The notes beneath the pieces were generated by a model that had not been told where the DNA came from, ran no database searches, and saw only the letters and a program-made list of their open reading frames with translations. Position numbers and translations under genes: made by a program. This document shows, piece by piece, positions 1 through 49,671 of a stretch of DNA of 64,000 bases. The number at the start of each line of letters is the position of its first letter. The first letter of the stretch is position 1. The DNA comes from Geosiphon pyriformis (Eukaryota; Glomeromycota; Glomeromycetes; Archaeosporales; Geosiphonaceae): the NCBI GenBank assembly GCA_016748015.1, contig JAAOMT010000557.1, positions 269,494 to 333,493 of the forward strand. The letters run 5' to 3'.

Positions 1-3000
1 TAAATATTACTACCATACTCCACCAAGTTTACCCATAATATTATGTAAAATAGCATATTAATATAAGTGCTAATAAAGGTGTTTAATGCTTATAAATTTA
101 CAGTTAAAATTTTTGTATTTAAAATATATGAAATCAAAAATAAATAACTTGCTAATTTAAAAAATAATCTATTTTTAATCATGTTATAAGTAGAATTCCA
201 CTGGATGGGACAATCCAGAATGAGTTTATAGTATTTAATTTGACATATATTACAGATGTATTTAAGATGTTCAAAACATTAGAACAAGATATAATTTTTA
301 ATTTATACAAAATTTATATAAAGAAAATTTTAAGTAAATATATTTGGTTTGGGTTTTTAACAAATATTTTGAAAACATTATTTTTTATTTTATCTAATAC
401 TGCCTGTATTACCAAATTTAGAATATGATCAAAGCATTAAAATTGAAGATTCTTCAAGTTTTATTGAATGTTTTTTTTTTCTAATTTTTTTATATAAGCA
501 TTATAATAACTTTAAGTCTTAGATAATACAAATACTAAAAATTTAACTCTAAAACAAAAATAAAAACCAATTTAAGCCAATATTAAAAAAACACTATTTT
601 TGATAATATAAACACTATAATAACTTTAAGTCTTAAATGATACTAATATATTATATAATATGCTAATTTTATTATTGGCTATTGACTAATACAAATTTAT
701 ATAAGAATATATATATGTATCTTTAATATAATTTTTTAATTTTCTAATACTTTAAAAAATTTATTGACAATATTTATTTTATTATATTGTTCACTCATTA
801 ATCTAAAATTAATTATTATTTGTTGAAAGTTCTAATTATTATTAATATAATAAGCAGTAACAAAGACAAAAGATTTTATTATTAGGAAATATTCAAAAAT
901 TTAATGTAAAAAAAATTTTGGACTTAATAATATCTAAATATGTCTATTATATTATAAATATAGGTGAAAAAAAAATAATATTTCATAATAAAAGTAGTGT
1001 TTACTTTTAATTTTTGTCTACTTAAGACATAAAATTCTATGACTTTATTTTTAATTATATTACCACAAACAAATAAGAAATAAAGTTTAAATATTGAAAT
1101 AATTTAATTAATTTAGGGTTTTTCATTATAAAAAGTAGTTATTAATAATTAATAAACCAAATAGTAATCATATTACAAAGTTTTTTATTATTAATTTTAA
1201 TAACAGTTATTATAGAAGACTAAAGCAGTTTTTTAGTTAGATTAGTTAAAAATCATAAAAAAAATAACAAATTTATTTATCAAAACATTTTTTCAATTAA
1301 TTTGCAATTTTTTTGGACATTTTGTCTTTTCTTATGATATTTTTCTATTATAATATATATTGTTTAGCAAAAAGCTTTTAAATAGTATTATAAAGATTTA
1401 GTAATGTCTGTAGTTTTACAAGAAAATGGTTTATACACACATTTTGAGACTGTATATTTAACTGTTTTTTTTATTTTGTCTACTCAAACTTATTAAAATA
1501 GTTTTATATTTTATTTTGAAAATTATATTTACTAAATATATTAATATTTAGACTATTTAGGTTATTAAATTTTATTATTTTGGATTTTGAATCTTAAGTA
1601 ACATTGAATAATTCTGACAATAAATTTATTTTGGTAAATTGAAGAATAGAATTGTTATATATATATAGTTTTATATATTTTTTTAACTGATTATAGTAAT
1701 TAAACAAAATAATGATTAATAAACAAATAGTACAAATTATATTTTTTTTAATTTCATTGAACTTAAACAAGTTTGTAAACCTTGAACCAGACTTGAATTG
1801 AACTTAAACTTGTCAAAAAGATTTAATGCCAAACTTGAATTGAATCTACTTTAAAAAATTAGTTTGGTTCAATTGAAATTCTAAATTATTTAAATAATAA
1901 TTTGGTCTATTATATTTACAAAGTATTTAAAATAGTTAATTAGCTTTTGTTAATCGAATTATTGTTTAAAAATAAGTTTATTATTTTTTATTTTAAGTTT
2001 TTATATTAGTATTTTATCAATTATATATTTGAATTAAGTTAAATTTTTTATAATTAAATTAATAAATTAGAGTTTATTTATTATTAAAAGATAATTTTAA
2101 TAAAAATAGTTTTAAAAAAAATATTAGTTTTAAAAAATATTTAAATTTAGATTAATTAATTTTTCGATAAATAATTTTATAATTAAAATAACAACATAAA
2201 ACAATTTAAAAAAAATAAAAAAGACAATTTATATTATTTATTAATATTATAATTAACAAAAAAATTTTAAATATAAGTAATTTTTTAATATTAATTATAA
2301 TATTATTTCTATTTTAATAAATTTAAGTAATTTACCAAATATTTAATTAATTTTTCTGTAAAAATAAGCCAATAAAAATCATTAAAAATATAATTTTAAA
2401 AATACAAATAATGTTAAAATAAATTTGTTTTATAAAATTTTTTAATTTAAAATAATAAATTTATTTAAAAATATTTTTATACATAAAAAAATCAAAAATA
2501 TAAATTAAATATGTGATATTATTTAATTAATTATGTTTTTATTAGTTAAAACAGTTTTTAAAAAATCATGATTTTTAAATTTTAATAACAGTATTTTAAA
2601 AAAAAATTTTAAATTTTAAAATTTTAAACTTTTGGATTTTAAAATTATAATTATATTTTGATAATTAAAATTATATATATTATAAATTTGTTAAATATTA
2701 ATTTTAATATAGATATTATTAAGTTTAAATTATATATTTCTGTATATTTTTAATTTAGTTATAAAAAAAATTATTATTTTAAATAATTTAATTTATTTAA
2801 TAAATTTTTAAGAGATTTTTTAGTTTTTTAGTTATTATATAATGTTAAATATAATAAAAATATATATATAACTATTGTTAAAGAATTTATTTTAAGAATT
2901 TATTTGTAAAATTATTATTAATTTTTAGAAATAGTTTTAAAATTAATATAAATATTGTAAATTTTATTTATAAATTAATAATTTATTATAAATTAGATAT

Positions 3001-3580
3001 CTAAATACAAAATTTTAAATACAAAATTAAATATATAAAAAAGATTAGTAACTGGCCACATATAATAAGTACATAAGTTTTAATTTTATATATTAGATAT
3101 TAATTGATTCATTAAAAAATTAATAAAAAAAATAAAAAAAGATTAATTGTTGTTAATAATTTTGTTTTATTTAATATTGTTGATTTATTAATAATTAAAA
3201 TTATGTTAAAAATATGTAAAATAAATTTTATCTATGATATTATAATTTGTTTTAATTTTAAATTTTTTTATTATTAATAGTTTTTTGCTAATTTTTGTTT
3301 ATTTACAAAAAATATATTTAATATAAATCTGTAATATTGTTTTAATTAACTTAAATAACTGATTATATATAATAAAAACATAAGTTATATTTATTTTAAA
3401 TTTTTAAATAAATATTATTTATGTATTTATTTTTATATTTAATTGATTATTTAATTAATTTAAATAATAAAATTTAAAAACCATTTATTTATTGTATATA
3501 TAAATAATTTAATTATTGTATTTAAAGATTGTAATAATAATAATAAATTTGGTTTTAAATTCAATTGATTATAAGAATAA

Positions 3581-3633
<53 letters not shown>

Positions 3634-3734
3634 GAAAAATAATAATAATTAATATATAAAAATAATAAAAATCCGATTGGGCCACACTTATTAAACCGAA
3701 TAAAAAAAAATCAACTTAAAATTTTTATTTTTAA

Positions 3735-3775
<41 letters not shown>

Positions 3776-4866
3776 GTATTTTTATTTTTAAATTATATTA
3801 TTATTATATATAAAATATATTATAATAAAATAAAATAAATATTTATATAAAATAACTAATATATTTAAAATATTAATATAATATATAAATATTAAATTGT
3901 ATTAATAAAAATATATAAAAATAAAATAATATAAACCTTTTTTTTATTTAAAAATTTATGTTAATTTTTATAATATATATTGTAATTTTTTATGTAATTT
4001 ATTTTATTTATATTAATTGTAAATATTTTATTATTATTTTTTATATATTTAAAAAAAAAAATTAAAATCAAGTTTTTTAAAATATCAAAGTATTTTTACT
4101 ATTTTAAAGTCTGTTTTTTTTTTTAGTTTTTATTAATTTTGTTATATTAGTATTTATTATAATTATTAATTTTATTTTGGTTATAAATAATAATTTTTTT
4201 TTATCATAAATAATAACAACAATAACAATAACAACAACAACAACAACAACAATAATAATAATAATATATTTATTAATTATATTTTTTAATATGTATAAAT
4301 AATTATAATAAAACAAGTTATATTTAAAAAAAATTTATAAAAAAAAGAATTTTTTATAAATATATATTTTAAATATTATTTTTTTAAGTCTTAATATTAT
4401 TTTTTATTGTTAAATAGTTTAGAATAATACATAATTAAATTTCTAAATTGTTATAAATTAACTAATTAATAATAATTGAATTATTAATGTAAAATATGAA
4501 ACCAATAATACAAATATTAAGATGATAATAAGAATCAAAAAAAAAAATTTATACTAAATCACAATTGATAATGAAACATTTAAATGTTCAAATATGTTTA
4601 AAATTAAAATTCATGATAATTAGGTAAAAAGAAAAGATAGAATCTTTTGATTATTATTAAACTTTGGAAGTTTTTTTTTGCTAATATCACGTGAATAAGT
4701 TTTTACCAAAATCACAATTAGCCATAATTGGACAATTTATTTTTCTTCCAAAAAGAAAAGTTATGCGTGCAATCTAAAAAGCAAATTCAGATTGTTTTTT
4801 AATTTTGATTTTTAAATTCTAATTTACCGTAATCTAGAATGATTGGACCCTGAATAAAAAGGTCAT
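1..4866. other. A+T-collapsed gene-free region
   Basis: Almost pure A/T sequence with no open frame that looks like a protein. It holds (AAT)n at about 3580-3632, (ATT)n at about 3738-3775 and an AAC/AAT tract near 4206-4265. A short stretch near 1740-1870 repeats a 'cttgaattgaa'-like motif. The composition matches that around the decayed LINE copies at 14-32 kb, so this may be the fully decayed remains of repeats; that is inference. Confidence 0.6.
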
Positions 4867-22540: not shown

Positions 22541-23726
22541 AAAAAATAAAAACTTCTTTTTCTCTTACTTCTAAAAATCCTCAAAAAGTGCATTTTCTGA
22601 AAAAGAAGTTTTCTATTTTTTCTTGTTAGTTTTTTCAACATTTCTTTAAATAATAATCCTTTCATCATGAATTTAAAGACTGTTTTGGGCAGTGATATAT
22701 TGAAAAAAAAAAGTGCCCAAAGGTGTTTTCCATGGTCCTGTTAGTGGTTTTTTTGCTCAGAAAAAAAAAGTGGTTCTTGAGAATGTTAAACACTCTGGTG
22801 ATGAGAAGGATATTTCTTTGAGTAAATCTGGGTCTGATATTAATGTGTATTTTAATATTGATAGTCTGTTTGGTGATAATGAGGATATTGGCATGACTGG
22901 TGTAAATGAAAGGTCTCTTTTGGATTCGGCTACAACCACTTTTAAGGCAAAACATATTAATACTGATACAATGTTTAGCTCTCTGCTTAGCTCTCCTAAT
23001 TTTACTATGGATGATGATGAAATTGTGCTTTCTTTTCACTTGCCTATTTTTTTGGAGAAAAAGTGGATTGATCCAAAAATCATTAAGACTCCTGTAGAAG
23101 TATCAATTAAAAAATTATTTGCTTTGGATATTAATTTTTCAGCTGTGAAAAGTAAATTAGCAATGGCAAAAACTCAGTTAATTAAAAATTTTTTTTCTTC
23201 AGTCAATGGTTTTGGGGGGGCCACTACCCTCTCAAAATTTGAAGGGATCATCCAATCAACATTTACTTCAGAAAAAAGCATGGAAGTGGTCATATTATTG
23301 GTCAAAGAAAAAGAGATTAACATAAACAGCAATCTTAAGAGACAAGAAATGAGGTCAGATTGGGCTGTGGTAATTAAGAAAATTCTCATGAATATATTTA
23401 AAGATATGATCATCACCGCAGTATTCAAATTTGGGGAAATTAAGTCGATCAAAATTTAACTAATTGATATGTGGCAAAAAGCTGTAATAGAATTTGCTAA
23501 ATTAGGCCAAGCTAATTTATTAGCCTCTAAGTGGTTATTTCTGATTGGTAAAAATTCTGTGTGCATAGCCAAAGCAGTAAAAGATTGTGAGACTTAGATG
23601 TCAAGAGATCAGTTCAGAGCACTTTTGTTTACTTTGCCAGTAGAAATAACAGTGCATAATTTTGGGACTCTTCTGGACAGGGCTGGTGGGAAAACTTGCA
23701 TTATAAACAGATCTCTGGAAACTGGT

Positions 23727-24737
23727 GTTACCAAAGGTTTTTGGTCTCTTTTTTTGAATGTTGTTAATGTCTGTTGGTTGTAAATTCACGTTTTCTAGAA
23801 ATAGTTGAACCTCCAATAACTGAATTTATCTTCAAATTATCTCCTATAATTTGAACTGCTGGGCTTATAAGTGGAATGGCCAATTTCTTGCCAGTTACTT
23901 TATGTAGTTATGTTGTAGTAAATGTCAACTCTTTCCCAGGAATTGCTCATCTGGAAGCTCACTAAAAATGTGTAGTTACTTTGCTGTAAAAGTCAACTCT
24001 TCTACAGAAATCTTGTCCATAGGCTACCCTAATGATTATAATAAGAAAAGAAAAGAAAAATAAAAGAAATGTAAAAGAAATAGAATTTTGTCAAGAAAAA
24101 CGTTTTCTATTCAGGCCTGGAGTCACTAACAGTTTACTGAAATTGGTAGCTAATCAATTTCGAAATGTTAGTTGGGTTTTGGGAATTTTTCAAGTACAAT
24201 AATTAAAGAATTTGGTTTTTTCAAATTATTTGATATTTATTTCTTTTTGTGTATATAGGAACGGTTTTAAGAGATAAATCTAAAGTAAGATACATTTTCC
24301 AGAAGAAAAAAACTCTTCTTTTATACAACTTGTTGTAGTATTAGTCTATGAACTTGCACTTTTTCTCTTTGCTCAAATTTTGGCGAACTAAAGATACATT
24401 TTGATGAACTACAAGTTATTTTACTGAACTATTGATTAATTTGGGTAAACTATTCATAATTTCGGCGAATTTCTGTAAATTTTGGCAAATTTCTTATAAA
24501 TTTTGGCGAATTTCTGTAAATTTTGGCGAATTTTAGAATGTTACAAAGTTCAGGGTATTGTGTAATTTGATCATCCTACTTTCTGTTATACTAATTAGAT
24601 TATTTTAATTGAATCGTGATATGTGATAATTGATTAAATAATAAATGATAATTTGAAATGATATTAATATACTAATGAATTATAGAAATTATAAGAGTAA
24701 TTTCATGCTAATTAATAGCTAAAATTCTACTAGTAAC
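23727..24737. mobile_element. Nested insertion (about 1.0 kb) in LINE C ORF1
   Basis: The ORF1 reading is cut after a codon series ending in 'ctggaaactggt' and resumes at 'actggtaatagg', so ACTGGT is present on both sides (23721-23726 and 24738-24743). This is consistent with a 6-bp target duplication. The insert begins GTTAC and ends GTAAC, a short terminal inverted repeat; counting two more bases (GTGTTAC/GTAACAC) would leave a 2-bp duplication instead. Removing the insert and one ACTGGT restores the ORF1 frame at this point. Inside are an AAAAGAAAAG patch (about 24040-24085) and a tandem array of a 'gcgaatttctgtaaatttt' unit (24460-24540). No protein is encoded. Confidence 0.7.
24460..24540 (+). 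repeat. Tandem array of about 20-bp units in the nested insert of copy C
   Basis: Three to four copies of a unit 'aattttggcgaatttctgta' with small changes, flanked by two more divergent ones starting near 24380. It occupies the same relative place as the array in the copy B insert. Confidence 0.75.
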
Positions 24738-25559
24738 ACTGGTAATAGGATTCATTGTGCTGTAGTCAGTTTTGAATCTGACAATAATCTGGAATCTGCC
24801 TTTTGCATGGAGCCAATTCTTGGTGGTATTAAACTTTCTTGGGCAAGAATAAATCTGGTTCAGTGTAAAAAATGCAGAAAGTTTGATCATTCTGTTCTAG
24901 AATGTGATGCATTTATTGTGTCCCCATTTAAGCCTTCAAGAACATTTAAAAGAATTGTTTCTAATGGGCATTGTCTTCAGTTCACAAAGTTGTATGAAAA
25001 AAAAGGTGTTCCAATATCTTGCCTCGCTGCTTTTGGTGGCAAATTTTGGGCCCAGGTAGTCATACTTGCTGGTTTTTCTGGTGGTCCTTATTTCAGTTCT
25101 GGTTCTGGTTCTGGTCTCCCTTTTTCTGGTGCCTTAGATTCAAACAGTGGTTCTCCTCTCACTTCAGCCAACAACTCTTCTTTGAATACTTTGGAATACT
25201 TCTTGGAGCTCTTAACAGATCAAGTATCCAGTATTTTAAAAAAGTTAAGCAGCATAGAACTGATACCAACAGCAACATCTTTTAGTGTTCCTTCTCTGGC
25301 CACTCCCACCTCTTTGGTGCCACATTTGGATGTAGATATGGCTTTGAATAATATGATATTGGCTTCCGCTTCTTTTCTCTCAGCTGTTGATGATGTGGTT
25401 TATAATTCTAGCTTGAGTTTTTCCAAGGTTCTGACCTCCAAGATGGCAGATTGAAATCAAAAATGATAGCTTTTGAGGTCTCAATTAGTTTGGTTTTGGA
25501 AAGGTTGGATTGTTTGTGTTCTGGTGTAGGTTTTTTAGCTTTCCTTCCTTCTTAATGAG

Positions 25560-28500
25560 TGGTTTGGTGTGAAAAGTGGCTACATATAATGTCAGAGACA
25601 TAAACAATCCTGCCAAACAAGAAAATATTGTTTGATAGCACAAAAATACAGGCAACATGATTTCAGTGGTTACTGAAACAAAGTTGAAAGACAAAGTTTG
25701 TTCTTGGATTATGAATAAATTTGATGGTATTCAAGTGTTCACCTCTGGTTTAGAGTCTGGTTATTTGGGTGCAGACATTGCCATAATTATGGATGTTTCT
25801 CTAGCAAAGTATGTGTGCAAAGTTTCTAAGGTGTCTGGTCGACTTATCTCTGTAAAATTGCTCTTCAAAAACAAACTTTTAGTGACAGTTTTGGGCTTGT
25901 ATGTGGGTGCCACCTTGGAGAAAAGGCTGGCTCACTTCCACATTGTCAATTCAATAGTGGCTGAGGCTTTAAATGACAGTATATTTATTGTTCTTGGTGG
26001 TGACTTTAACAAAAATGATTCTGGTTGCAGTGCAAGCTTCAAGAAATGTCTGAATCTGAGTTTGTTTGATTCTTTATATGGTTTTTTTTTGTACAAACTT
26101 CCCATATGGTCCAATTTGAGGGGTGTTCAAAAGTGCATAGATTTTATATTAGTTAATGATAGTCTTCACAGTTCTTTTTTTAACCAAAAAGTTTACTGTT
26201 CAGGTGAATTTTTTGATTCTGACCACTTGGTCATGTTAATAGATATTGGTTTGGGGGGCTTTCTCAATTCTTAGCTTAATTTGATATGCAGACAGGCCAC
26301 AAAAAAAAAATGGAAATACAAAGTCAATAATGTCAATAGAGAGGTTTGGAAAAAGTTTGGGAATGCATCATTGGTTGCTGTTTTAAAAACTGCTGGTGAT
26401 TTTGAATACCATAACACTAAAGATGATATCAATAGAATGTGAACACTTCTTTGTCAAATAGTGCACTCTGCAGTGGAAGCTACTTTTGTGAAAACATGGT
26501 CCTGGAATAGTGGGTTGGTCAAGACTGCTGCATTTTCTAGATTTCACAAGTTAGAACTTTTGGTGGCAAAAATTTTGAATACATACAAATCAAGAAATTT
26601 GGAAAGACTTCAGACTTTAGTTGATAAATAGGTTAACTTGGACTTTGACCAAGCTATAAAGTTCAAGAGTTCCTTGGACAATGGTTAAGACAGAGTATTG
26701 GTTGAATAATTATTGGCACATTTTAGGAAATTGTATAGGTTCTGCAAGTTTTTGGACTCTAAGGCTACTAAAGACTCATGGATCTGGGTGGCCATCAATA
26801 AGTACATGGAAGTTTTTGTGGACAACAAAGGTCAAATGATCAGAAGTGTGTTAGAGAAGTCTTTTAGGAAAGTTACATTGGATCATCTGGTTAATAATAA
26901 AGATTTGGTTTTAGAGCCTGATTTGGTCAAAGGCAGAGTGGATTCAATTATGGAGAATTCGACCAGGAAATGCACAGTCAAATCTTTAGTGTCTTCCTGT
27001 TGGCAAGTACAATTTTTTCCTCTCAATCATGTCAGTGATAATGCATTCTGTGGTGTAATAAAGCAAATTGATCTTGATGAGTTTTTATTGGTGGTCAAAA
27101 ATCTTCCTGACGGCAAAGCTACTGGTTTGTCTGGTATCTTAATGAAATGTAGAAGCACTATGATGAGTCTGTTCTGGTTTTTCTTTTGCATTTGCTCAAC
27201 TTGTGCTTGGTATGTGAATCTGTTTCAGATATCTGGAGAGAAGCCTAGGTATCTATGATTCTAAAATCATATAAGTGAGAAGGAGTTCTAATGAACACCA
27301 GACCTATTGCTCTCATTGAAACCTCTAAGAAAATTTTTTCAAAAATTCTATTTGATCACATTTCAAGAGTCTGCAGCACACACAATGTTCTGTGTGGAGA
27401 TAATTTTTTGGTATTGAAAGACATTTCTACTTAGTCCCCTATCTTTGTTGTAGGATTTGTTGTAGAAAATGCTTTGAAAAAGGGCAGAAAACTCTGGTTG
27501 GTATATTAGGACATGTGCAAAGCTTACAATTTAGTAGGCTGATTGCACTTGAAAAGTAGTCTAGAGAAAATCAAAATATGTAAGAGATTTGTCAGGTTTT
27601 TTGGTAATATTCACAATGGTTGTATAAATAGAGTTATAATAGACTTTGGTTTGTCTGAAGGTTACAAAATTCATGATGGTCTGGACCAGAGAGAAGTTTT
27701 TTCTCCTTTTTTATGGAGAATTTTTTATGATTCTCTGTTGTGCAAAGTGAAGAAACATAAGTCATTTTTTGAGTATTGGATTGATTCTAAATTTGTGGCC
27801 AGAATGAGCAGAATTGAGTCAAATGCTGGTTTGATTTTTTATTTGGCTGCTGGTGTTTTCATAAATGACACCATTTGGGTTGACAATTGTCATACAATGA
27901 CACAGAATATTTTGAACATTGCTAATGAGTTCTTTGAATTAATGGATATATTGATTAACATGGAGAAAACAATTGCCATTTCTATTAACCCAAGGACCAG
28001 TAACATCTTCTTAAAAGTGAGTGGGTCTCCAATTTCAATCACAAAAACTGGTGAGGCTCATTGGTATCTAGGTATTTTTCTGTCAACTAAAAGTTTTTCT
28101 GGTCTAAGTTTAAAGAAAGTGAATTCAGATGTCAAGTTTTTTTCATTCATGGTTTTGCACAAAGCTATTACAGACAAACAGTTTTCTTATTTGGTATTAG
28201 CCATTTTACAGCCCATAGTAGAATATAGAACTCAATTTAGCTTTGTCAATAGAGGCACGTGCAAGAAATAGGACCATATGATTAGAAAGGGGTTGAAGTC
28301 TAAAGCCAGTTTGCCTAAAGACTTTCTTAATGAGGCAGTACACCATCCTTCTTTTTACAATTTGAAGCCCTTTGAACAAGTTCAGGCAGAAGCAAAAGTC
28401 TTATCGGTGTTATAGTTTGCTAATAATAGTGAGTTAATGGGTTGACTATTTGGGCATAGGTCAATAGACTTGCAGGTTTTGGGCTGGGTTCCTCAGAACC

Positions 28501-30240
28501 CTCTTCAATTTCCTGTTAAGTTGATGGTCAATTCAATGAACAATTTTCTGGTTGGTGTTACTAAAATTTTTTTGTGTAATAAAATTTTCTTAGCTAATAG
28601 CTTGCCCAATGCTTTTTGTCTTAAACAAAGTTTTCCTGTTCTGGATGTTTTGGACCAGGCAATATATCTCTGGGTTTGCAAACCACTAAAGTGTTTTGGG
28701 ATCATTTTTGCAGACCAGTTGTTGAACAGTCATGGAAAATGTTTCAATTGGAAGAATTTTCACTGTTGGAAATGATTGGATCCCAAAGGCCCAGTTCCCT
28801 TATAGTTCATAATGGTTTTAGATTTTGTCAAGAGTGGTGATTTGGCTAAAGGTTCCTCTTCTGTTTTTGAGTCTCCTTCTAAGTTAGATGTTTCTAATAC
28901 AGACCACTTTGGTTTCATCCATTCTAGTTTAAAAGATGCTTCTTTGCTAGTGATCTCAGTTTATACTAATGGTTTTGTTAAAGACTTTGATACTTCTGAT
29001 ACTGTCGGAGGGGCTGTCACTTATTTTTCTGATCTAGGTTTGTATATAGGTGTGGAGATTTATAATTTGCTATCATCTACCTTAACTAAAATACAGGCTG
29101 TTGCACTGGCTCTTGAGTGCATTCTGGCTTCCTTAAATGTTACAGTTTTCTTTGACAGTCAGGCTTCTTTGGATGCTTGTCAGGCTGAGTTGAAGTTGGT
29201 GGCTCCAGATTTTCACAACAGGTACTGGATGGAGCACTGTCATATTAGCAATTTGGTCAAATATAAAAACATTTCTGTTACCTGGACAAAGGTGAAAGAT
29301 CACTCTGGTGTGTTGGGCAATGAATGTACTGATTGGTTGGCTGATCTAGCCATATTATCAGTGCTTGTTTTTTTAGCAAATATCAAAAAAAAATTTTTAA
29401 TGACAGATGATAAAGTGATTTCTGGCAATGCATGCTGTTTTATTAGAATAACAAATGATATTGTTAGACGTTTTTAATAAAAATTTGGACCTGGTTTAAG
29501 CATTGTGGATCCTTTATGAGTTGGGGACATAAATTGGGTTTGTACTGCTTTAGTCTGGCACTCTGATTCCCATATGTCTGCAGGATATACAAGCAGAATC
29601 ACCACTGGTTTGCACACTTATTTGATAAAAGCTTTACACAAAAGGCTGCCTGTTGCTATTAGAAAGCATTTATATAATTAAAGTTATCTTAATGTATTAT
29701 GTGTATATTGTAGAGAGATAGAATTTTCAGATCATAGTTTTGTTTGTTGCTTAGACTTTTTAATGTATTAGAGCTTGTTAAATAAACATTCCTCTTTTTG
29801 AAAATCTCTTACTGGGACAATCTTGTCATCATCTGTAGTTTTGCAGTCTCTGGCTTCTTCTGTTTCTAATGATAGTTTTTACACAATTTTGTGTAAGGGT
29901 CTCATATTTGAAGATTGGTTGGCAGATACTAAAGCATCTTTTGTGGATACTAAGCTTACAATGTCTAATCTGGTTGAGTTTGTTTGGGATATGGTTGTTG
30001 GCCATAGAGAGCAAATTTGGGTGCCTAATTCAAAAATTTGAGCTGAAATAAAGTGTCATGGGTCATTATATGCAGATGGGTCTTTATATAATATTATTCG
30101 GAGTCTTCTTGCTAAGATTTCAGATGTTGCTTATTTACTAGGGATTGAAAGGAATCATGTGACCAACTTTGGCCTGAGTATTGGCCATTTGTTTTTTGCT
30201 GGTACTACTGGTGAAGTTACAGTAAATATAGTTGCATAGT
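25560..30240 (+). pseudogene. LINE C ORF2 (endonuclease, reverse transcriptase, RNase H), broken
   Basis: The endonuclease part runs about 25575-26275 and keeps TETKLK, GGDFN and SDHLV motifs. The reverse transcriptase part runs about 26290-28270. It includes LPDGKATGLSGI, a fingers/palm region and FINDTIWV where an F-x-D-D motif is expected, so the first of the catalytic pair is Asn. The segment before it, GLDQREVFSPFLW, corresponds to the conserved Q-G-x-x-S-P block with Gly changed to Arg. An RNase H part lies at about 28950-29370. Its first acidic motif reads VYTNG (Asp to Asn) and the next conserved Glu is Lys (STLTKIQAV); FFDSQ and the late TDWLA remain. More than a dozen stops interrupt the frame. 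Target-primed reverse transcription is the family function and is lost here. Confidence 0.85.
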
Positions 30241-45287: not shown

Positions 45288-47553
45288 ATGATGCGTCAAC
45301 CGAAACAAGTCGTTTTGAGCTTCAAGCACCAAAACCAAAGTCACTTCTCAACCTTGACTTTGCGTCCCTATTCCCCCTCTCTCAAAAAAACACTGTACAG
45401 CCACTCACACAAGCGAGCTAGCTTTTCAAGTTTCATTGTAACTATAGAAAGTCCCAAGTTGTTTTTACTTGCGCCGACCATTCAAGGGCCTTTACGCAAG
45501 AACACACGACTTTCCCGCGTTAAACCCACTTTTTCAACAAACACTGCTAACTTGCGTTTCAGCGTGAAGGATGCAAGCGCTCCAGTCCCTAAATTGTTGG
45601 AAAAGAAAAAAAACAAAACAGAAAAAATAGTGCTTTCAAAGTCTGAGGCACCCCCTCAAAATTTGAACTCCAACATAACAAAAATACTTGAAGGTTTAAG
45701 GAAGACTCTCTTGCTTGAGGATTCTTATCTTCAATTTATTATAATTATAATTTTATGTTACAGTATTGGCTCGTAAAGAAAGAGATAACGTATACAAGGA
45801 ACGAGTATATTTCAACGCGATTCGTTCAATATCATTATATCCTCAGAAACTCGCATCGGGAGAAGAAGCAAAACGAATAAAAGGAATAGGAGACAGTATT
45901 GCTCAAACCATTGATGAAATCTTGAAAACAGTATGTAGTTGAAATGAATTTATAACTCTATAATTGAAAAGATCAAAAGTATGTGATCTTTGGGGCAATT
46001 AATAGTCAAAATTTTCATTTTTACCATTTCATTAAGGGTACATGCAAAAAATTAACAGAGGAAATCGGTCCAGAAGATGAGTTGCAGAATTTGGTCACTC
46101 AAGTTCATGGAATTGGGTGCGCCGCTTCCTCCTTTAAAATTTGGAATCCGTATTATGGAAATTATTGAGATTAAAGCAATTTCTTGGAGATGTCTCATTT
46201 ATTATGTTTAATATTTTACTTTGAAAGGCCAGTATCCGCCCAGAGATTGATTGAAAAAGGATGCAAATCAATTGATGATGTTGCTAAAGATCCTGATTTA
46301 ACGTCCAAGCAGCGAATAGGAATCAAGTATTTTAACGATTTGGCAACCGAAATTCCTCGTCAAGAGATGGTCGCACTGGAAGTAATAAATGGTTTTTTGT
46401 GCAATTTGTTTTTATTTCGTGATTATTTTTCCTGATTTCAGATTATTTGCTAATTATGGCATATTACAAAAGGGATACATAATCGGAGCGTTACAAAAAT
46501 TAGACGAAAAATATATTGCGACCATTTGTGGAAACTTGTAGGTATTTTTTTTATAAATTGGGTCAAAATTATCATGATATATTTAATTTTTTCTTTTTTC
46601 CCGTTTTAATTAGTCGGCTAGGCTTTCAAATGTCCCGTGATATAGATCTCTTAGTCTCCCACTATGACTATATAAGTTCGCTCCAACCTAAACCAGGAGA
46701 ACTACTTCAGAAAATTGCCAATAATCTTGAAGAAAAACAATTTATCAAAGATCATATTAGTATAGGACCGCTTAAATACATGGTAAATTTTTATTCTCGA
46801 ATTCATAAATAATAATTAAACTCGGGAACTTACCCAATATACCTAGGGAATATGCCGACTTTCAAACGACACGAGTTATTTGCACCGACGAATTAACATG
46901 CGGTATTTTATAACAGTTTACCCATTTCCAATTACTTGAAAATGTATAGGTCAATTGAGTGATATTTCAACATGTCTCTCGATTTCAGATTAGTACCTTA
47001 CGATCGCTACTGGCTTGCTGTGTTCACCCTCACAGGTGATGATGAGTTCATCAGATATACTCGATCTCGTGCCATTAAAAACGGCCTTAATATGAATGAA
47101 TACATCCTGGCACCTAAAGATCCCGCGACTGGCGAATTAGGAGAACCTCTCGAGATAAAGAATGAGGAAGATATATTCAAAATGATTGGAATGAAATATT
47201 TACCACCCGAAGATCGGTGTTGGAACCCGGTAAAAAGGGAATTAAAGAAGGGACAACCATTAAGCGTAGATTGGTGGAGAAATCTATCCAGCCAAACTTC
47301 AGATCGATCTCGATGGGCTGAAAAGACCACGGATACAAGTCGGCAAAAGCAGTCATTCATTTCAAGATCTTTGTTTGGAAAAGAATTAACGAGTCAAACC
47401 CAAACAGGAACGGTAGTGAATAACAGTAACATGATACTAAAGGAAGAAATTAAGCAAGAAATTAAGCAAGATGTTCCAAAAAGTAGACCACTATTATTTG
47501 AAGTTACAAAGCGCATATTCAAATGGCCTTGGCCGACAGAAAAAAGGGCTTGA
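45288..47553 (+). CDS. POLB: DNA polymerase beta homologue with degenerate active sites, probably mitochondrial
   Basis: Eight exons: 45288-45693, 45764-45930, 46037-46116, 46228-46381, 46473-46537, 46614-46782, 46847-46902 and 46989-47553, 553 aa. The first 100 residues are Arg/Lys/Ser-rich and nearly free of acids, like a mitochondrial presequence. Residues 125-440 follow polymerase beta closely: 8-kDa domain, two helix-hairpin-helix motifs (GIGDSIA, GIGPVSA), QRIGIKYF, CGNFRLG, SRDIDLL, HRRINMRLVP and NEYILAPKD. Asp300 and Asp302 match the first two catalytic aspartates. The third (human Asp256) is Asn364. The lyase lysines 68 and 72 are Ser180 and Thr184. Human Ser180, Arg183, Gly189, Tyr271 and Phe272 correspond to Asn290, Leu293, Arg299, Thr379 and Leu380. 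A 110-residue C-terminal extension is unique. The frame is intact, so a structural or regulatory product is possible; a young pseudogene is the alternative. Confidence 0.85.
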
Positions 47554-48184: not shown

Positions 48185-48295
48185 ATTTTTTCGTTGGTGC
48201 TGTATGATAATCCGTTGATAAATTATAAATATCTAATGGCAGAATGACTCATAATTATTGGCTTAAATATTTTGGGTTCCACTTGCCGATATATC
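48185..48295. promoter_or_regulatory. Short divergent promoter, small membrane protein and EMG1
   Basis: Only 111 bp separate the two start codons, the tightest pair in the window. A shared bidirectional promoter is almost forced by the spacing. No motif was recognised. Confidence 0.55.
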
Positions 48296-49671
48296 ATGGC
48301 ACGTAAAAAGAAAAGGTCACTTACTATCTTTGCATTTGAGAAAGAGAGGGACAAAAACTCGAAAAAACGACAGAAAGGCTTTCCTATTGAGATTCCTGAG
48401 GCTCAAGAGTTAAAAAGCTTAACACAGGAATCGGATATCGTGGAAGAGGCCCGAGAAGAGCAACAACTTGACCCTATTAATATATCGGAGGGTGTTGATG
48501 AAGAACAGGTTCTTAAAAATGAGCCAGAACCGGTAGAGCTCGTCTCAGAAGGTGTTGATGAAGAACAGGTTCTTAAAAATGAGCCAGAACCGGTAGAGCT
48601 ATCTCTTATTCCGAAAAATGTCAACACCTATCTCGTCCTGGAAGGTATTGATGAAGAAGAGGTTCTTGAAAATGACCCAGAACTTTTAGAGCTCTCTCTC
48701 ATTCCGAAAAATGTCAACGCTTACCTCGTCCCCCAAACACCACGAATACCAAAAACTCCCACGGAGAAAGAATCTACGCGTCGGTTGATTGTGGTTCTAG
48801 AGGCGGCTTGTTTGATGACCTACAAATTCGACAAAAAGAAAACAGTTGAATTACTGAACTGCGACGACCATCGTGGCATTTTACAAAAGCTTGGTAGAAA
48901 CCCTTCTGATTCTAGACCAGATATCACTCATCAGGTAAAGATATTTCAACTAGATCTAATTGATTTAATTTCGCTCGCCTCAAAAATTCATCGCTTAATT
49001 AATCTAGCCTTTTATTTGAATGAAGTGTTTGATGCAGTTGCTAGATACTCCATTAAATAAAGCTGGTTTATTACAAATTTATGTACACACTGCAAAAGGC
49101 GTGCTGATCGAAGTGAATCCGCATGTGAGAATACCAAGAACTTTCAAAAGATTTTCTGGCTTAATGGGTAGGATGGCAGAATTTTTATTAGGAATGTATA
49201 TTCATTTAATTGTTTTACAATTGACTTTTTGGCTTTTATGCTGTTTCTCAAACACAACCCAGTACAATTGCTACATAAACTCAGTGTCTCCTCAATTAGA
49301 GGTTCAGAAAAGCTCTTAAGGGTAATCAAGAATCCAGTCACACAATATCTACCGACCAAGTGTAAAAAATTAAGTATGTTCAAGATTTTGCCACTGTTAA
49401 ATTTCAGTATTTTTTGCTGATCGATAACACTTCTTATTTTGCAAAAGCCTTATCATTCGACGCAAAGACTGTAAGACTTAGAGATTATCTTCCCACCATC
49501 CCCTCCGATCATTCTATATGTGTTGCGATTGGAGCAATGGCTCATGGCCCTGATACTTTTGCCGATGATTGGGTGGACGAAAAGATTGGAATTTCCGAAT
49601 ATTCATTATCAGCTGCTGTGACATGCGCAAAATTCTGCTGTACTTTAGAAGATTTATGGAATATAGTATGA
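48296..49671 (+). CDS. EMG1: Ribosome biogenesis methyltransferase EMG1/NEP1 with N-terminal extension
   Basis: Four exons, 48296-48934, 49026-49167, 49263-49373 and 49448-49671, give 371 aa. Residues 162-371 are a full SPOUT-class EMG1 domain: [86 protein letters not shown] and [18 protein letters not shown]1 methylates the N1 of a pseudouridine in 18S rRNA and is needed for small-subunit assembly in the nucleolus. Yeast and human proteins are about 245-252 aa, so roughly 130 extra residues sit in front. These start with a basic, nuclear-signal-like MARKKKRS and continue as an acidic tract built from repeats (units at 48488, 48548 and 48641). ATG 48296 is the first in frame. Splice acceptors for exons 3 and 4 were chosen by phase and family fit. 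Confidence 0.92.
48488..48733 (+). repeat. In-frame tandem repeats in the EMG1 N-terminal extension
   Basis: Three units: 60 bp (48488-48547), 93 bp (48548-48640) and 93 bp (48641-48733). The first two share an almost identical 53-bp stretch. Encoded units begin [18 protein letters not shown] or [18 protein letters not shown], and the longer ones continue SLIPKNVN-x-YLV. Near identity of the first two indicates recent slippage or unequal exchange. Confidence 0.9.

What the first reader, a model, noticed from the sequence alone, without database searches (positions are those of the whole stretch)
45288..47553. Polymerase beta homologue with an intact frame but most catalytic residues replaced
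Seen in the sequence after splicing by eye: third catalytic Asp is Asn (codon AAC at 46893-46895), both lyase lysines (human 68 and 72) are Ser and Thr, and residues matching human Ser180, Arg183, Gly189, Tyr271 and Phe272 are Asn, Leu, Arg, Thr and Leu. The family functions are established for polymerase beta: two-metal nucleotide transfer by three Asp and 5'-dRP removal by Lys72. The frame stays open through eight exons and 553 codons with the fold-defining residues conserved. Loss of two separate activities without loss of the frame suggests a repurposed protein, for example a DNA end-binding or structural factor. A young pseudogene is the competing view.
Basis: partly seen in the sequence, partly recalled or inferred. 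Interest (0 to 1): 0.75.

Follow-up and report, generated by a model that had tools for sequence, protein, structure and literature searches.

The report
Fungal DNA polymerase beta without catalysis

Summary
Eight exons (45288-47553, +), all seven introns GT-AG, join into an open 553-codon frame with the four family X domains. Pol beta is the closest solved relative (261 bits; Pol lambda 155). Asp190 and Asp192 are kept; Asp256 is Asn, at 46895-46897, two bases from the stated place; lyase Lys68 and Lys72 are Ser and Thr; R183L, G189R, R149E and N279I add to the loss. No alternative exon 7/8 junction tried restores the Asp. Several listed positions also vary in human Pol mu, so the polymerase case rests on D256N and R183L. 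The gene is single-copy; the one other PolX found is Pol mu-type with its Asp triad. In 3,600 neutral simulations none gathered four key changes without a stop, so catalysis was lost while the gene was kept; very recent death is not excluded. Best reading: a Pol beta pseudoenzyme that still binds DNA. Inactive PolX is known in bacteria; the papers listed in my searches showed no eukaryotic gene of this kind. Expression, orthologues and dN/dS were untestable here.

The parts
45288..45693 (+). exon 1: cationic N-terminal extension (residues 1 to about 125) and start of the 8-kDa domain
   Evidence: donor AAG|GTTTAA
45764..45930 (+). exon 2: 8-kDa lyase-type domain; Lys68 equivalent = Ser (45895-45897), Lys72 equivalent = Thr (45907-45909), HhH1 GIG kept
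46037..46116 (+). exon 3: end of 8-kDa domain and start of fingers (D) domain, HhH2 GIG kept (last G shared with exon 4)
46228..46381 (+). exon 4: fingers (D) domain and first palm residues; Arg149 equivalent = Glu (46349-46351)
46473..46537 (+). exon 5: palm; Ser180 equivalent = Asn (46533-46535)
46614..46782 (+). exon 6: palm; Arg183 = Leu (46618-46620), Gly189 = Arg (46636-46638), Asp190 and Asp192 kept (46639-46641, 46645-46647)
46847..46902 (+). exon 7: palm; Asp256 equivalent = Asn, codon AAC at 46895-46897, in HRRINMR
46903..46988 (+). intron 7 (GT-AG); its last bases read LDF in the downstream frame, but no AG lies between the in-frame stop at 46960-46962 and that Asp codon
46989..47553 (+). 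exon 8: thumb (Tyr271 = Thr, Phe272 = Leu, Asn279 = Ile) and a C-terminal extension of about 108 residues without Pfam match

Best explanation
The gene encodes a Pol beta-type protein that has lost both enzyme activities but is (or was until very recently) kept by selection: a pseudoenzyme. Shown here: intact frame and splice sites, family X domain order, replaced third metal Asp, replaced Arg183 and lyase lysines, single copy, and a separate Pol mu-type gene with its Asp triad. Inferred: it cannot add nucleotides or cut 5'-dRP, but still binds gapped or nicked DNA through its two helix-hairpin-helix motifs and kept basic residues, and works as an end-binding or scaffold factor. The strongly cationic, acid-poor N-terminus suggests mitochondria as the place of action, with the nucleus as an open alternative.
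For: Open 553-codon frame over 8 exons; four family X Pfam domains over cut-off; 135 of 324 aligned residues (41.7%) identical to human Pol beta, 39-44% in each of four domains. D256N and R183L at positions that are the same in human Pol beta, human Pol mu, the genome's own Pol mu-type gene and one viral PolX, L011. The viral PolX, 27.5% identical elsewhere, keeps 9 of 13 metal/dNTP positions (P = 0.003), while the window protein, 41.5% identical elsewhere, keeps 5 of 13 (P = 0.69): the extra conservation of the active site is gone. K68S, K72T and E71Q remove the lyase site. In the neutral simulation 0 of 400 runs at each of 9 divergences combined at least 4 of 6 key residues changed with no stop. 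One DNA match in the genome. Pol beta D256A (Ala, not Asn) is called polymerase-dead in PMC5228075 (passages read). Residues 1-92 hold 15 K+R and 1 D+E.
Against: No transcript, protein or orthologue evidence. Asp190 and Asp192 are kept, which drift in a dead site would not require. Human Pol mu is also at 5 of 13 by the same count and the Pol mu-type gene at 6 of 13, neither enriched, so the count itself does not prove inactivity. Kept DNA-contact residues show possible, not actual, DNA binding; K41, K68, K72 and K230 are lost. The N-terminus shows no unusual amphipathic helix (62% of shuffles reach its value), and SUMO-like motifs in the C-terminus would point to the nucleus.
Confidence: 0.62

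Rival explanations
1. A young pseudogene: the gene is no longer used and its frame has not yet broken.
For: No expression data; the neutral simulation of this coding sequence gives P(no stop) of 0.26 at 1% and 0.085 at 2% divergence, so a very recent death leaves the frame open (indels ignored).
Against: Death that recent does not explain the losses: on average 0.12 of 6 key residues change at 1% and 0.26 at 2%, and 4 or more changed in 0 of 400 runs each. Identity to human Pol beta outside the active site stays at 41.5%. So catalysis was lost while the gene was kept.
Confidence: 0.15
2. A divergent but active enzyme: some nucleotidyl transfer or another reaction survives, using Asp190, Asp192 and an unknown third ligand or Asn256.
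For: Asp190, Asp192, Ser188, Gly274, Asp276 and R254/R258/E295/Y296 are kept; human Pol mu, a gap-filling polymerase (PMC5557891, start of abstract in the listing), differs from Pol beta at S180, G189, Y271, F272 and N279 too.
Against: D256 and R183 are the same in the four other sequences compared; R149 is reversed in charge (it varies in the others, without such reversal in the viral and human Pol mu rows); G189R puts a large basic side chain beside the DxD. D256A is described as polymerase-dead (PMC5228075).
Confidence: 0.12
3. Gene-model or assembly error: another junction or a sequence error hides an ordinary Pol beta.
For: The end of intron 7 reads LDFRLVP in the downstream frame, which resembles the Asp motif; the model rests on homology only.
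Against: 0 of 12 distinct in-frame, stop-free GT/GC-AG junctions (the model's own and 11 others; introns of at least 29 bases) restores the Asp; the motif HRRINMRLVP aligns without gap to human HRRIDIRLIP. The changes are spread over six exons.
Confidence: 0.04

Closest known systems
DNA polymerase beta (human, rat; family X)
   Same: Same domain order (8-kDa, fingers, palm, thumb), 41.7% identity over 324 residues, best PDB match, two HhH GxG motifs and R254/R258/R283/E295/Y296 kept.
   Different: D256N, R183L, G189R, R149E, N279I, K68S, K72T; N-terminal extension of about 125 and C-terminal extension of about 108 residues.
Noncanonical prokaryotic PolX (e.g. Deinococcus), PMC9226535 (abstract and sections 11 and 16 read)
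   Same: Altered metal triad and altered dNTP-binding residues in a PolX that is kept; the paper reports two tested members inactive as polymerases.
   Different: Those are reported to keep a PHP exonuclease and a lyase domain without specific alterations; the window protein has no PHP match and has lost the lyase lysines.
Human Pol beta variant with exon alpha, PMC6616571 (listing and start of abstract only)
   Same: A eukaryotic Pol beta form said in the title to be deficient in DNA polymerase.
   Different: A splice variant beside the normal enzyme, with full dRP lyase activity by the title; here the genomic codons themselves are changed and the lyase lysines are gone.
[quoted passage not shown]
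   Same: Pol beta-type core; the PAK form has N- and C-terminal variable extensions; mitochondrial in most trypanosomatids (here only suspected).
   Different: Both trypanosomatid enzymes are reported to have polymerase and dRP lyase activity.
Pol mu/TdT- and lambda-type fungal PolX, PMC12828229 (passages read)
   Same: Family X in fungi; the genome's second PolX (L006) has Pol mu as best PDB match and the GW motif.
   Different: The window gene is Pol beta-type, which that paper says multicellular fungi lack.

Membership tests
DNA polymerase family X, Pol beta type (by descent) | Domain order 8-kDa HhH, fingers, palm, thumb | tested here: met
   PF14716, PF10391, PF14792, PF14791 all over cut-off
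DNA polymerase family X, Pol beta type (by descent) | Closer to Pol beta than to Pol lambda or mu | tested here: met
   261 bits to Pol beta against 155 to lambda; mu not among the 60 shown of 93. No tree with eukaryotic orthologues was made.
Active DNA polymerase beta | Three metal-binding Asp (190, 192, 256) | tested here: not met
   D, D, N
Active DNA polymerase beta | Triphosphate-contact Arg183 (and Arg149) | tested here: not met
   L and E; R149 also differs in the three other comparison sequences, R183 does not
Active 5'-dRP lyase | Schiff-base Lys72 and Lys68 | tested here: not met
   T and S
Noncanonical (inactive) PolX as in prokaryotes | Altered triad and dNTP site in a kept gene | tested here: met
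   that the gene is kept is inferred from the simulation, not from orthologues
Noncanonical (inactive) PolX as in prokaryotes | Functional PHP nuclease domain | tested here: not met
   no PHP match in the whole protein (E to 0.001) or its C-terminus (E to 0.1)
Mitochondrial Pol beta-like protein | Import into mitochondria | tested here: inconclusive
   15 K+R and 1 D+E in residues 1-92, but no unusual amphipathic moment
Pseudogene | Broken frame, lost splice sites or neutral evolution | tested here: inconclusive
   frame and splice sites intact; dN/dS not testable here

The most novel reading that the evidence does not exclude
A eukaryotic Pol beta lineage turned into a dedicated non-enzymatic DNA-gap or end-binding factor, perhaps of mitochondria, in an organism that no longer has any PolX with the lyase lysine pair, so that base excision repair there must run without PolX dRP removal.
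Probability: 0.3. Interest if true: 0.7.

Novelty: new variant of a known kind. Interest (0 to 1): 0.5.

Why it matters
Inactive PolX proteins are described in bacteria, where a second, nuclease domain offers a reason for their retention (PMC9226535). A eukaryotic Pol beta with neither activity and no further known domain would be a cleaner case of a repair enzyme reused for binding alone, and it would bear on how fungi said to lack Pol beta (PMC12828229) carry out base excision repair. It is directly testable with one purified protein and RNA reads.

Tried and rejected
Rejected: restoration of the Asp by another junction (0 of 12 in-frame junctions, the model's own included; donors to 47009, acceptors to 47079); neutral decay as the origin of the losses; a second, active Pol beta copy (one DNA match; thumb and fingers models hit only this gene and the L006 gene; the palm model hit only L006 and missed the window gene in the unspliced genome, so by-exon searches can miss genes); the C395 hit as a PolX (its frames look like Mus81, named from recall).

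Led nowhere: relatives in viral contigs, genome contigs and phages: none. The alignment query gave one viral PolX (L011) and one bacterial fragment that I did not use (L012). XRCC1_N and FAS_I_H searches of the genome found nothing, but no control genome rang, so they show nothing. PMC6264785 (passages) mentions Rhizophagus only for a ligase. Paper searches: 0 papers; some searches listed 20 of 70, 20 of 33, 15 of 597, 4 of 4 and 10 of 19. Among those listed I saw no eukaryotic Pol beta gene that lacks both activities; PMC6616571 (a polymerase-deficient human splice variant) comes nearest. This speaks only for these nine searches of an open-access library. RNA mapping and dN/dS could not be run.

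Limits: the simulation assumes kappa 2 and intron base frequencies, ignores indels and starts from the present sequence. The 13-position comparison uses four sequences besides human Pol beta, one of them the window protein, and 10 of the 13 roles are recalled. Exons were chosen by homology and splice signals. L006 was spliced by eye over its core only. The SUMO-like matches had no chance control.

Full report
Observation. I joined eight exons by homology and splice signals: 45288-45693, 45764-45930, 46037-46116, 46228-46381, 46473-46537, 46614-46782, 46847-46902 and 46989-47553, all on the + strand. They give 554 codons including the stop, with no internal stop and GT-AG at all seven introns. 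Introns are 64-111 bases and 20-31% G+C, against 39.8% in the exons. The protein has the four family X domains over Pfam's cut-offs. Its best solved relatives are Pol beta chains (261 bits at best); Pol lambda follows at 155 (60 of 93 matches shown).

Residues. On a local alignment to human Pol beta (324 aligned residues, 135 identical), Asp190 and Asp192 are kept and Asp256 is Asn, codon AAC at 46895-46897. Lys68 is Ser, Lys72 Thr, Ser180 Asn, Arg183 Leu, Gly189 Arg, Tyr271 Thr and Phe272 Leu, as stated. Kept: Lys35, Tyr39, Lys60, Lys84, both GxG hairpin motifs, Lys234, Arg253, Arg254, Arg258, Arg283, Asn294, Glu295 and Tyr296. The roles of these residues are recalled from the Pol beta literature except where cited: PMC11914125 (passages) names K35, Y39, K68 and K72 at the 5'-phosphate and D190, D192 and D256 as the triad; PMC5228075 (passages) calls D256A polymerase-dead. 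Asn is not Ala, so loss of activity by D256N is an inference.

Control on the residue list. At 13 metal and dNTP positions the window protein agrees with human Pol beta at 5, human Pol mu at 5, the genome's own Pol mu-type gene at 6 and a viral PolX (L011) at 9. Asp256 and Arg183 are the two that no other sequence compared has lost. The window protein has neither the YF pair of Pol beta nor the GW pair of Pol mu. The viral protein is 27.5% identical elsewhere yet enriched at these positions (P = 0.003); the window protein is 41.5% identical elsewhere and not enriched (P = 0.69); Pol mu and the Pol mu-type gene are not enriched either (P = 0.24 and 0.12). With Pol beta as its nearest relative, the active site has lost its special conservation while the rest of the fold has not.

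Junction. The last bases of intron 7 read MSLDFRLVP in the downstream frame, a tempting way to restore the Asp. Of 12 distinct in-frame, stop-free GT/GC-AG junctions (the model's own and 11 others; introns of at least 29 bases), none does. The in-frame stop at 46960-46962 and the lack of an AG between it and the Asp codon explain why. Intron retention gives stops.

Genome context. The window lies in a 124.7-Mb assembly of 406 contigs. The gene has one DNA match there. Thumb, palm and fingers models reveal one more PolX at C355 near 1,190 kb. Its frames include a BRCT-like N-terminus (recognised from recall), GDVDV and RQLDII with intact Asp, and the GW motif; its best PDB matches are Pol mu (208 bits), then TdT, lambda and beta. 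It has Lys at the Lys68 place but Gln at Lys72. If the by-exon searches are complete, no PolX in this genome has the full lyase pair; that is inference, and the palm model's miss of the window gene shows that such searches can fail. The PF14716 hit at C395 lies beside Mus81-like frames (from recall) and is not counted.

Pseudogene test. Starting from the present coding sequence, I simulated neutral substitution with intron base frequencies, 400 runs at each of nine divergences from 1% to 30%. At 1% divergence the frame stays open in 26% of runs, but on average 0.12 of six key residues (those matching K68, K72, R183, D190, D192 and D256) have changed. No run with four or more changed kept an open frame. 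The losses therefore arose while the gene was maintained. This does not show that it is maintained today.

Location. Residues 1-92 hold 15 Lys/Arg and 1 Asp/Glu, as mitochondrial presequences do (recalled), but the hydrophobic moment is not unusual (62% of shuffles reach it). SUMO-like patterns start at residues 422, 447, 516, 520 and 524, without a chance control. Neither terminus has a Pfam match over cut-off. Location is open.

Known kinds. PMC9226535 (abstract and sections 11 and 16 read) describes prokaryotic PolX with altered triads, 27.5% of its set, two of them shown inactive as polymerases, that keep a PHP exonuclease and a lyase domain without specific alterations. The window protein is like them in its altered polymerase site but has no PHP domain and no lyase lysines. 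PMC12828229 (passages read) states that multicellular fungi lack Pol beta; its fungal set was gathered with human TdT as query. Trypanosomatid Pol beta enzymes, mitochondrial in most species, are reported active (PMC8375306, passages). A human Pol beta splice variant is polymerase-deficient but lyase-active by its title (PMC6616571, listing).

Verdict. A Pol beta pseudoenzyme kept for DNA binding is the best reading; its present use, place and partners are not shown.

Noticed in passing
window 48248-49060: An open frame on the + strand matches the start of EMG1/NEP1 methyltransferase (Pfam 1.7e-10) and carries a long N-terminal part with repeated units of the type [18 protein letters not shown].
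   Followed up: no
window 2001-4000: A 2-kb stretch of only 7.3% G+C.
   Followed up: no
window 22704-29477: A run of + strand frames that look like a LINE-type retroelement (endonuclease- and reverse transcriptase-like; named from recall).
   Followed up: no
L006 (G000:C355:1186500-1192500): The genome's second PolX, Pol mu-type with intact Asp triad; its Lys72 equivalent is Gln, so it too may lack dRP lyase activity.
   Followed up: partly
L011: A viral-contig PolX of up to 291 residues, about 28% identical to human Pol beta, with intact triad and Lys72 equivalent but with part of the 8-kDa domain missing in the alignment.
   Followed up: partly
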